Of a stretch of DNA of 64,000 nucleotides, positions 34,547 through 37,613 are shown in pieces. The stretch lies in the NCBI RefSeq assembly GCF_905475395.1, contig NC_058338.1, forward strand, positions 74,721,435-74,785,434, in the 5' to 3' direction. Within the stretch, counting starts at the first letter, position 1. Every line of letters begins with the position of its first letter. The translations under genes and the position numbers were made by a program. The notes beneath the pieces were generated by a model, which searched no databases, was not told the origin of the DNA, and saw only the letters and a list, made by a program, of their open reading frames with translations. The DNA comes from Chrysoperla carnea. Taxonomy: Eukaryota; Arthropoda; Insecta; Neuroptera; Chrysopidae.

Positions 34547-37500
34547 ATGTTCGCCGCCGCTAGATTGATTGCTCCAGCTGCCAGATCCGCTGTAAGTCTA
34601 AATTTTTTTTTTTAATTTTTTCTGCCTTAATAGCTATTGAAGTTTAAAGTAGGTTACTTAGATTTTATTTTCATTGTATAAAGTAAAAAAATTAATGTTA
34701 AGTTCATAGACTTGATTACTAATTTTTAGAATCAAATTATGGTTACGTAATGTAACTTAGTTATCTAGTAATTTGTGAACTGAAAGCCTCAAACTGTAGG
34801 AGTATATATTCAATGATATTAATTATATAATAATTTCTTTCAAATTTGTTTCAGTTGGTATCTAACTCAAAATTATACTTGAGACCATTAAGTAGTGCAG
34901 TGGTATCAAGTAGTTCATTGAACAAACAGACAACAGTAGCTGGAGCTCAACCAATCAGTTTACTTCCCGCAGTTAGGTCTTTCCAAACAACTGCAGTGAC
35001 TAGAGATATCGATTCTGCAGCCAAATTCATTGGTGCTGGCGCTGCTACCGTAGGAGTAGCTGGATCTGGTTAGAATTTATATATAATGATATTTTTTTCA
35101 GTTTTCTCTAGTATTATGTAACTTAAAAGGCACTTGAAAAGGTACAATAGATTTACATGTTCGGTCATTAATAAACTTGCATTTAGGGATTCACATACGG
35201 AGCACTTAGTTGCTACATTTAATTCCGGGAAGGTCTGAGTGAAGGTTAATTATATGTCCTAGCAGGATGTCTTTTGTAAAAAAGAGTGGAAGAACCAGAA
35301 ATAGTCGGATACTACAATGTAAGTCAGCGATTGTCCCCTGACATGAGACGCTAATTGTTGTATCTGTTGGAAACTTCTGTAACCGGCAATTTGAGTACAA
35401 TATGCAAGCCAATTTTGATAAAAGTTGGAACTTAATTCAGACTATTCTATTAATGGCTTACTTAAAATGTATTGTACCAGCTATGCTCACATTTTCTTAA
35501 AATTTTTCATACATTATGAATTGAATGCTGTAGGTATTGGTATTGGTGCTGTTTTTGGATGTTTAATTATTGGCTATTCCCGAAATCCTTCATTAAAACA
35601 ACAACTCTTTTCCTATGCCATTCTTGGTTTTGCATTATCCGAAGCTATGGGCCTGTTTTGTTTGATGATTGCATTCCTTTTGCTTTTTGCATTATAATTA
35701 CATTATTCCTAAACTTTTCATGAACTTTTTAAGTGTATTAATTTTTTTTTCATCTTGTGAATGTGTTTTTTGTACTGTTATAGCACATAAAATCGAATTC
35801 TTGACGAAAGAAACGATAGTGGTCAAAATGCCCAGAAAAAATTAACAAAATACTAATTTCATCTCTCGAGTAAGGATAGGGTAGAGAATGATGAAAATTA
35901 AAATAATTAACACTACAATTAGAAAATTAATTTTCTAATTAAATACTCATTCTTTTTTACCAATTTCCATTTCAAATCATGCCTAATTTGATTACTATTT
36001 TGGGAAATAATCTATTTCATCTTAATAAGTTCGAAAAATATTAATCTTATCAATCATTAAAATTATTGATTAGCAATAAAAAAGTGTTTCCTGAACAATA
36101 ATATTTAAATTTAACAAGATAATTTTCAATCAAGAATTGGGTTTTATGTTTACAATTGTATGTTGCGAATTTCCTTGAAAAGCAGTGCATGTGTATGCTT
36201 TTTGTATGGTTAAGACCGGTAATTTTTTTTTTATGTAGGTTAAGATCGAAGAAAAAACTTGAGCGTTCAGGTTAAACGGCGTTGAAATTTTCTTGAAGGA
36301 CCACAAGACTTTGTGGGACTTTTTCAATAAATGCACATTTTTTTCTCTAATCTTAAACATGCATAAAATGAAGTTAATAGTAATGAGATGCCATTCTTCT
36401 CTTAATTATACAAAAAAATTAATTAAATATATTCTGTTCGTTTACTGTAAAGTTTTTTAATTTTTGTAAAAAAGCAAATTTTTTTTTAAAGTAATAATTG
36501 AGATAAAATTTTTAAAATTTGGTATTATATTTGATAAGAAAAAAAATAGATTACGGTCTACGTATTTCTTTGAATGACTTTTTAGGAAATGATCTCATTA
36601 ATTAATATTATACTTTTCTGGTGAGTTTTCATTTTACAAAACATTTTAATAATATCTAAATATAAGACGGCACAATAGGGATCATCTAAATATTCTTATT
36701 AACAGTAAAAACAATTGCAAATTATTGGGATCTTAAATTATTATTTAAGGATGTATCGACGGCGAAGGAAAATTGATTTCCTTTTGATTTCACTTTGTGT
36801 GTGGGTAATGTATCAACTTTTTGTACGCGTGCGCCGTCTTAAATTGGAATATATAATCAAATATTTTAATAACTTCAATTTTTAAAGTCAAAACTTTAGT
36901 TCAATAGAAAGTTGAAGAATTTTTATGAAAAAGACAATAAATTACTTAGTCACCTTTGATTAATTTTTCGAAAACTTGATGATTTACGAAATCATGTTTC
37001 TAATTATATTCAAGTATGTAGGAATTTTTGAAGTCACAGAATAATTTAATTAAGAATTATATTTTTCTAATTCTAGTTTAAAACTATTTCATGACTTGCA
37101 TAGTTTTCGAGAAAATGATCGAAAAGTGGATGTTGTTTTTTCACCTCCCCTCATGAATAGACTTTATGTTGAATCTAAATTATCCAAATTAATGAACTTA
37201 AAAACAAAACTTGTAAATAATTGTTATTAATTTGGATAATTTAGAGAGAAATACTTCGTTATTAGTATTTTGAATTTAATAATGTAAAGTATTTATATAA
37301 TCAGCTGATTTTTATTTTTTTATAAGTGGACTATAATTTATCGAACAAATAAGTTTAATTATTACTTCTCTACTAATCTATTCTCTGAACAAAATAAAAA
37401 TCTTTTTTTTTTTTTTCGATAAATTATAATTGTGTGTTTTTCTGTTTAGGTGCTGGTATTGGAACAGTGTTCGGATCCTTAATTATTGGTTATGCCCGAA

Positions 37501-37613
37501 ACCCATCATTAAAACAACAACTTTTCTCATATGCAATTTTAGGATTCGCCTTGTCTGAGGCTATGGGTTTGTTCTGTCTTATGATGGCCTTCTTATTGCT
37601 CTTCGCTTTCTAA
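34547..37613 (+). CDS. ATPsynC: ATP synthase F0 subunit c, mitochondrial precursor
   Basis: Three coding exons join in phase: 34547-34591, 34855-35068 and 37450-37613, giving 140 residues. The first 65 or so residues are an Arg/Ser/Ala-rich mitochondrial presequence ending with an [17 protein letters not shown] junction. The mature c subunit is a two-helix hairpin: helix 1 is Gly/Ala-rich ([19 protein letters not shown]), the polar loop is ARNPSLKQQ, and helix 2 contains the proton-binding Glu in GFALSEAMG. It forms the rotating c-ring of the inner-membrane F0 motor. A second, intact version of exon 3 lies 1.9 kb upstream of the normal one (35534-35697). The exon 2 donor is the weak GTTAGA, which could favour a choice between the two. 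AATAAA occurs at the stop and again at 37641. Confidence 0.96.
35164..35457 (+). mobile_element. ATPsynC: 294-bp MITE, copy 1 (ATPsynC intron 2)
   Basis: Ends are short inverted repeats (GTCATTAATA ... TATTAATGGC). About 90% identical along its whole length to the 294-bp copy at 41645-41938, with the same orientation. No coding content. The superfamily is not assigned because no clear target duplication was found. Confidence 0.8.
35534..35697 (+). CDS. ATPsynC: Alternative last exon of ATPsynC (exon 3a)
   Basis: This 164-nt segment follows an acceptor (GCTGTAG), has the same length and phase as the normal exon 3 (37450-37613), and ends in TAA. It encodes 54 residues that differ from the normal exon at six: A to I, T to A, S to C, A to S, M to I and a final F to L. 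The loop RNPSLKQQ and the Glu in ALSEAMG are kept. By direct count, 26 codons differ silently against 6 replacements. That means long coexistence under purifying selection and rules out a fresh duplicate or a decaying one. Spliced to exon 2 it would give an alternative c subunit. It has no intron or poly(A) trace of retroposition. Expression is unproven. Confidence 0.72.

What the first reader, a model, noticed from the sequence alone, without database searches (positions are those of the whole stretch)
35534..37613. ATP synthase c subunit with two mutually exclusive, intact last exons
The proton-binding helix of ATPsynC is encoded twice, at 35534-35697 and 37450-37613, with the same 164-nt length, the same phase and its own stop. 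I count 26 silent and 6 replacement codon changes over 54 codons, and the catalytic Glu and polar loop are unchanged. That pattern means both have been kept functional for a long time. Splicing choice would swap the c-ring isoform at one locus, where vertebrates use separate genes for isoforms that share one mature protein. The exon 2 donor is weak (GTTAGA).
Basis: partly seen in the sequence, partly recalled or inferred. Interest (0 to 1): 0.75.

Follow-up and report, generated by a model that had tools for sequence, protein, structure and literature searches.

The report
Lacewing ATP synthase duplicated last exon
A green lacewing gene for the rotor ring of the mitochondrial ATP synthase carries two intact versions of its last exon, the first directly behind an embedded RNase P RNA gene; splicing could therefore swap the rotor protein, although no RNA data were available to show that it does.

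Summary
Exons 3a (35534-35697) and 3b (37450-37613) are both 164 nt, in the same phase, and complete the same 140-aa ATPsynC precursor: 22 identical, 26 silent and 6 replacement codons of 54. dS is saturated (2.4), dN 0.09. 3b encodes the canonical c subunit; 3a changes A23I, T27A, S31C, A37S, M67I and F75L and keeps E58 and RNP. The six changes fall on positions that vary among 3b and five solved c sequences. No other copy of exon 2 or of an F-type exon 3 was found in the genome, which is Chrysoperla carnea.

RNase P RNA in this ATPsynC intron, with weak acceptors, is known in Drosophila (PMC4287351, PMC6797745). Here 3a has the weakest of seven acceptors compared, 3b a good one. Best explanation: alternative last exons giving two c isoforms, 3a in the ancestral position behind the ribozyme. 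Expression and conservation in relatives are untested.

The parts
34547..34591 (+). ATPsynC coding part of exon 1 (45 nt), donor GCT|GTAAGT
34855..35068 (+). ATPsynC exon 2 (214 nt): end of presequence and start of mature c subunit; one place found in the genome; donor CTG|GTTAGA
35163..35458 (+). RPR1: nuclear RNase P RNA gene in ATPsynC intron 2, 94 nt after exon 2 and 75 nt before exon 3a
   Evidence: Rfam RF00009, 125.8 bits (hit 35164-35457); ends set by P1 pairing; geometry
35534..35697 (+). ATPsynC exon 3a, variant last exon with own stop (I23 A27 C31 S37 I67 L75); weak acceptor
36075..36080 (+). AATAAA, candidate poly(A) signal for 3a, 378 nt after its stop (by my arithmetic chance alone gives about 0.8 such sites in that stretch)
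   Evidence: base frequencies
37450..37613 (+). ATPsynC exon 3b, canonical last exon with own stop; good acceptor
37613..37646 (+). Two AATAAA motifs (37613, 37641), candidate poly(A) signals for 3b
40978..43983 (+). RpL15, next gene downstream; exons 40978-41158, 41434-41570, 42059-42169, 43788-43983 give a 204-aa protein
   Evidence: the name is recalled from the protein sequence, not from a search
41644..41939 (+). RPR2: second nuclear RNase P RNA gene, in the RpL15 intron 41571-42058
   Evidence: Rfam RF00009, 130.3 bits (hit 41646-41937)

Best explanation
ATPsynC of Chrysoperla carnea has two homologous alternative last exons. The exon 2 donor is joined either to the near acceptor (3a, 465-nt intron) or to the far one (3b, 2381-nt intron). 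Each supplies the end of helix 1, the RNP loop, the proton-binding helix and a stop, so the mRNA makes one of two mature c subunits. Exon 3b gives the standard c subunit and is probably the main form. Exon 3a sits directly behind the intronic RNase P RNA, the place that the last exon has in Drosophila, and gives a variant with fungal-like Ile23 and Ser37. Shown: both exons are intact, in frame, found at this one locus, and differ in a constrained way. Inferred: both are spliced and translated, and the choice is regulated.
For: Both forms complete the same precursor without stops. dS 2.4, dN 0.088, 29 of 38 differences at third positions. If 3a were a neutral copy of 3b, no stop and at most 6 replacements has probability 0.036 after 14 substitutions, 0.0009 after 20, and 0 of 50,000 runs after 28. 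All 6 replacements fall on the 25 of 53 positions that vary among 3b and five solved c sequences (hypergeometric P 0.008), and three (I23, S37, I67) are residues found in the fungal ones. PF00137 gives 8 places, two here and six that translate as V-ATPase-type (type recalled); exon 2 DNA has one place and exon 3b DNA only 3b and 3a. Codon usage of 3a is no worse than 3b (0.61 v 0.52 relative to RpL15 alone). Both acceptors keep AG.
Against: No transcript, junction or peptide data. The 3a acceptor scores lowest of seven compared and above only 72% of all AG in the window. No strong poly(A) evidence for 3a. A recent loss of 3a is not excluded (P 0.55 and 0.28 after 8 and 10 neutral substitutions). 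At four of the six positions (23, 27, 31, 37) 3b has the residue of the bovine-type chain and at 67 that of another chain, so the replacements are read as being on the 3a side. Drosophila, the best studied insect, has one ATPsynC locus whose alternative mRNAs probably encode one mature protein (PMC6086398, passages), so the trait is not general in insects. No relative could be examined: a viral-contig scan with the 3b peptide found none, and the held genome has no relatives.
Confidence: 0.7

Rival explanations
1. Escape-exon version, a refinement of the best explanation: the duplication eases a conflict between ribozyme and host gene. RNase P RNA in this intron matures better when the intron splices slowly. 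3a keeps the weak acceptor just behind the ribozyme, while 3b with a better acceptor supplies enough ATPsynC mRNA. The protein difference is secondary.
For: RPR1 ends 75 nt before 3a. 3a has the weakest acceptor of seven, 3b the third best. PMC6797745 (passages) reports poor or absent acceptors in this intron in all 12 Drosophila species, and that ideal sites raised spliced mRNA about 2.5-fold without a proportionate rise in RNase P RNA.
Against: The second RNase P RNA, in RpL15, sits in an intron whose acceptor is the strongest of the seven, so weak sites are not a rule here. Only seven acceptors were compared, with an approximate matrix recalled from memory. The idea does not explain why the 3a protein differs.
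Confidence: 0.2
2. 3a is a formerly used exon, now silent; ATPsynC is made from 3b only.
For: Weak 3a acceptor; the replacements read as being on the 3a side; a loss about 10 neutral substitutions ago would leave this pattern with probability 0.28.
Against: No stop, frameshift or lost AG; replacements only on tolerant positions.
Confidence: 0.2
3. 3a is a regulatory decoy: splicing to it lowers 3b mRNA (different 3' UTR or decay), and its protein is unimportant.
For: 3a precedes 3b, has a weak acceptor and a stop; a 3a transcript that fails to end early would carry about 1.9 kb of 3' UTR including 3b (from coordinates).
Against: A decoy would not need a replacement-poor, full-length coding sequence.
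Confidence: 0.07
4. Assembly artefact or alleles placed in tandem.
For: None found.
Against: Silent divergence is saturated, similarity stops at the exon edges, exon 2 was found once.
Confidence: 0.01

Closest known systems
[quoted passage not shown]
   Same: Tandem homologous coding exons of one nuclear OXPHOS gene at the same place in the protein
   Different: [quoted passage not shown] here they are terminal with own stops and no transcript evidence. The paper's table gives CG1746 (ATPsynC) three coding exons; the passages seen name no alternative exon for it
RNase P RNA embedded in ATPsynC of Drosophila, mayfly, dragonfly (PMC4287351, passages and sections 10-11; PMC6797745, passages)
   Same: Same gene, intron before the last exon, same orientation, weak acceptor after it (Drosophila)
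   Different: Here a second last exon follows, and a second RNase P RNA lies in RpL15, a recipient gene not named in what I read; Neuroptera are not named there either
Drosophila ATPsynC (PMC6086398, passages)
   Same: Single locus for subunit c; RNase P RNA in its third intron; several annotated mRNAs
   Different: Those mRNAs differ in start sites, one N-terminus and 3' ends, and probably encode one mature polypeptide
Separate subunit c genes: mammals (several genes, one mature protein) and T. brucei c-1/c-2/c-3 (PMC3542316, passages); Anopheles gambiae duplicate with 4 against 408 ESTs (PMC551531 Table 2, passage)
   Same: Several forms of subunit c in one organism
   Different: Separate genes; mammalian mature proteins identical; T. 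brucei forms differ at the N-terminus and not in the glycine motif. Here the difference would lie in both helices and arise by splicing

Membership tests
Mitochondrial F-type ATP synthase subunit c | ATP-synt_C domain with RNP loop and carboxylate in helix 2 | tested here: met
   PF00137 48.5 and 49.5 bits, cut-off 24; E58 and R38-N39-P40 kept in both
Mutually exclusive exon cluster (strict sense) | Cluster of internal exons, so that each needs both an acceptor and a donor | tested here: not met
   Both exons end in a stop; definition from the start of the abstract of PMC3228551 in a listing
Mutually exclusive exon cluster (strict sense) | Same length, frame and homologous sequence | tested here: met
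   164 nt each, same phase, 77% identical
Alternative last exons | Shared upstream donor, separate acceptors and stops | tested here: met
Alternative last exons | Separate poly(A) sites | tested here: inconclusive
   AATAAA motifs after both stops, but common by chance in this AT-rich DNA
Alternative last exons | Both used in mRNA | not testable with these tools
   No RNA data held
Pol II-embedded insect RNase P RNA gene | Covariance-model match to nuclear RNase P RNA | tested here: met
   125.8 and 130.3 bits, gathering score 28. Genome-wide search lists these two only (16 of 7573 first-look candidates scored). By energy alone RPR1 is not exceptional: z -1.56, 9 of 100 shuffles fold as well
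Pol II-embedded insect RNase P RNA gene | In an intron of a protein gene, same orientation, without Pol III signals | tested here: inconclusive
   Position and orientation met. Each copy contains two internal TTTT runs, which speaks against Pol III; but RPR2 has a T7 run starting 11 nt after its end and an AT-rich stretch before it, so Pol III signals for RPR2 are not excluded; no PSE search was made

The most novel reading that the evidence does not exclude
A terminal-exon duplication that resolves a conflict between a ribozyme gene and its host gene and at the same time creates a switchable c-ring: transcripts that splice slowly past RNase P RNA end in 3a and build rings with a bulkier, fungal-like Ile23 in the glycine-rich packing helix, which might change ring stability or even the number of subunits; transcripts that skip to 3b build the standard animal ring.
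Probability: 0.1. Interest if true: 0.85.

Novelty: new variant of a known kind. Interest (0 to 1): 0.57.

Why it matters
The c ring sets the proton cost of ATP. Mammals make one mature c protein from several genes (passages of PMC3542316) and Drosophila probably one from one gene (passages of PMC6086398). A locus that could make two by splicing, differing inside the helix whose glycine motif governs ring size, would let ring composition be tested within one animal. The same intron carries RNase P RNA, whose maturation in flies depends on how this intron splices, so the locus also tests the suggestion in PMC6797745 (passages) that weak splice sites around embedded RNase P RNA are selected. The RpL15 copy shows the ribozyme in two neighbouring host genes at once.

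Tried and rejected
Relatives: a viral-contig scan with the 3b mature peptide gave 161 pattern matches and no relative. The held genome has no relatives. I made no scan of metagenome contigs or genome contigs. Conservation in other lacewings is therefore untested.

Retrocopies that could record which exon is spliced in the germ line: none found; exon 2 has 1 place and exon 3b 2 places (3b and 3a) in the genome.

Separate second gene for 3b: rejected, exon 2 was found once. Alleles or assembly error: rejected on divergence.

Simple tandem duplication of the unit RNase P RNA plus exon 3: the order is RPR1, 3a, 3b, then RPR2 inside RpL15, which does not fit that unit.

RNA-mediated copying of RNase P RNA: similarity stops near the RNA ends (91% over 300 nt; ungapped flanks 26/60 and 24/60), but neutral flanks of an old DNA duplication would look the same, so left open.

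Literature: ten searches. 'ATP synthase subunit c' with 'mutually exclusive exons' gave 0 papers; with isoform, alternative splicing and insect, 1 unrelated; searches matched 14,256 and 481 papers of which 20 each were listed. None of the listings or passages I saw describes a duplicated ATPsynC last exon. This covers only that open-access library, and I could not see the RefSeq annotation of this genome, which may already list both forms.

Own errors corrected: exon 1 end off by one, fixed; RpL15 junctions wrong, fixed; the P1 stem of RPR1 is out of register in the Rfam alignment, so P1 was recounted without gaps. One search translated four minus-strand loci on the wrong strand, fixed. The acceptor matrix and the donor consensus are recalled approximations.

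Full report
WHERE IT IS. The window is C2:74721435-74785434 of a genome of 559,487,470 bases in 337 contigs. C1 is 139,979,878 bases and C2 100,744,152. The Chrysoperla carnea assembly inChrCarn1.1 has 337 scaffolds, a longest scaffold of 139,979,878 bp and a chromosome 2 of 100.74 Mb (PMC10116181, first of two parts read). So this is the common green lacewing (Neuroptera), chromosome 2. Total span (560.25 Mb in the paper) and the sixth contig (38.56 Mb here, X 38.62 Mb there) differ slightly; I did not resolve this.

THE OBSERVATION. ATPsynC has coding exons 34547-34591 and 34855-35068 and two possible last exons, 35534-35697 (3a) and 37450-37613 (3b). Either gives a 423-nt reading frame and a 140-aa protein, both matching PF00137. 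Of 54 codons, stop included, 22 are identical, 26 differ silently and 6 by replacement. Similarity ends 3 nt upstream and 7 nt downstream of the exons.

CONSTRAINT. By my own Nei-Gojobori count over 53 codons dS is 2.4, near saturation, and dN 0.088; 29 of 38 differences are at third positions. I simulated 3a as a neutral copy of 3b: no stop and at most six replacements had probability 0.55, 0.28, 0.036 and 0.0009 after 8, 10, 14 and 20 substitutions, and 0 of 50,000 after 28 and after 40. So 3a was probably under protein-level selection for most of its history; a recent loss is not excluded. In mature numbering the replacements are A23I, T27A, S31C, A37S, M67I and F75L. I compared 3b with five solved-structure sequences, chosen because their alignments were printed (of 22 distinct hits and 25; one lacks residue 75). 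Of 53 positions 25 vary and all six replacements fall on these (hypergeometric P 0.008); I23, S37 and I67 occur in fungal sequences. Codon usage of 3a is not worse than that of 3b, relative to the 204 codons of RpL15.

UNIQUENESS. PF00137 gives eight places in the genome, 8 of 8 candidates scored. Two are 3a and 3b; the other six, at three loci with two matches each, translate as V-ATPase-type sequences (type recalled). Exon 2 DNA has one place, exon 3b DNA two, 3b and 3a.

Rfam finds two nuclear RNase P RNA genes on the same strand: RPR1 in the intron between exon 2 and 3a, and RPR2 in an intron of the next gene, whose 204-aa product I recognise as RpL15. The genome-wide search lists only these two (16 of 7573 first-look candidates scored). 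They differ at 30 of 305 positions. Of 59 pairs compared (48 outside P1, 11 in P1), 46 are unchanged, 8 change on one side and still pair, 3 change on both sides and still pair, 1 is lost in RPR2 and 1 is unpaired in both. This fits both copies being functional, without proving it. By folding energy RPR1 is not exceptional (z -1.56, 9 of 100 shuffles fold as well). RPR1 starts 94 nt after exon 2 and ends 75 nt before 3a; RPR2 starts 73 nt after its upstream exon and ends 119 nt before the next.

WHAT IS KNOWN OF THIS ARRANGEMENT. In Drosophila, mayfly and dragonfly RNase P RNA lies in this ATPsynC intron; recipients named in what I read are ATPsynC, eIF-4B, Rcc1, RpL36A, Uch/USP43 and Mbs (PMC4287351, passages and sections 10 and 11). 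RpL15 and Neuroptera were not named there. Two RNase P RNA copies in one recipient gene are reported there for Tribolium and Heliconius. PMC6797745 (passages) reports that fly RNase P RNA biogenesis depends on splicing and debranching, that this intron has poor or absent acceptors in all 12 Drosophila species, and that inefficient splicing may favour the RNA; a splicing-independent route may also exist. Drosophila ATPsynC is a single locus whose alternative mRNAs probably encode one mature protein (PMC6086398, passages).

SPLICE SITES. Pyrimidines at -20 to -5 number 8 of 16 for 3a and 12 to 14 of 16 for six other acceptors. With an approximate recalled matrix, 3a scores -1.36, higher than 72% of 2,878 AG in the window; 3b 2.09 (94%); the other five -0.45 to 3.22. 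The exon 2 donor is unremarkable (6 of 9, as exon 1). 3a has a 53-nt stretch without AG before its AG, but so have four others of the seven, at 47 to 59 nt.

HOW IT MOST LIKELY WORKS. Exon 2 is joined either to 3a or to 3b. Since each has a stop, any 3a transcript encodes the variant subunit wherever it ends. 3a has the position of the fly last exon, behind the ribozyme; 3b is the extra copy by position but keeps the canonical protein. Splicing and translation of 3a are inferred. Ile at position 23 lies in the glycine-rich packing motif of helix 1, which passages of PMC3542316 and PMC3692424 link to ring size. In the PDB listing, 5 of the 8 closest sequences have exactly 8 chains per entry (the others 366/35, 48/2 and 64/5). 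In one search, 4 of the 5 closest to yeast have exactly 10 (the other 520/51), and all five have Ile at position 23 and Ser at 37. Organisms are recalled, not listed. Ile23 is at an x position, not a glycine, so a change of ring size is a speculation to test.

VERDICT. Observation confirmed; interpretation partly supported. I rate it a new variant of a known kind: homologous alternative last exons, here in a c-subunit gene that also hosts RNase P RNA. Not shown: use of 3a in any tissue, presence in relatives, effect on the ring.

Noticed in passing
window 41644-41939: A second RNase P RNA gene in an intron of RpL15, the gene next to ATPsynC; three pairs changed on both sides against RPR1 fit both copies being functional.
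   Followed up: yes
L015 585-1832, 5956-7554 and 8932-9498, minus strand (chromosome 1 near 138.886 Mb): A COX1 frame (PF00115; 532 aa) open under the bacterial code and, by eye, a COX2-like frame; the frame at 585-1832 looks by eye like DNA polymerase B. Perhaps bacterial DNA beside a mobile element on a lacewing chromosome; only the COX1 match rests on a search.
   Followed up: partly
window 18090-19025 (+) and 21664-22179 (-): Neighbouring frames: an A49-like RNA polymerase I factor (PF06870) and a PLP-dependent enzyme (PF00291).
   Followed up: no
window 29126-30691 and 32635-33271, minus strand: Frames that share motifs by eye (YDEKDTDYYLRNYPRKDY against YNEKDTDFYIRHFFRKDY), perhaps a local gene family; the two that were searched (29984-30691 and 29126-29521) had no Pfam match.
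   Followed up: no
window 41571-42058: The intron holding RPR2 has the strongest acceptor of the seven compared, unlike the weak acceptors reported around RNase P RNA in flies.
   Followed up: partly
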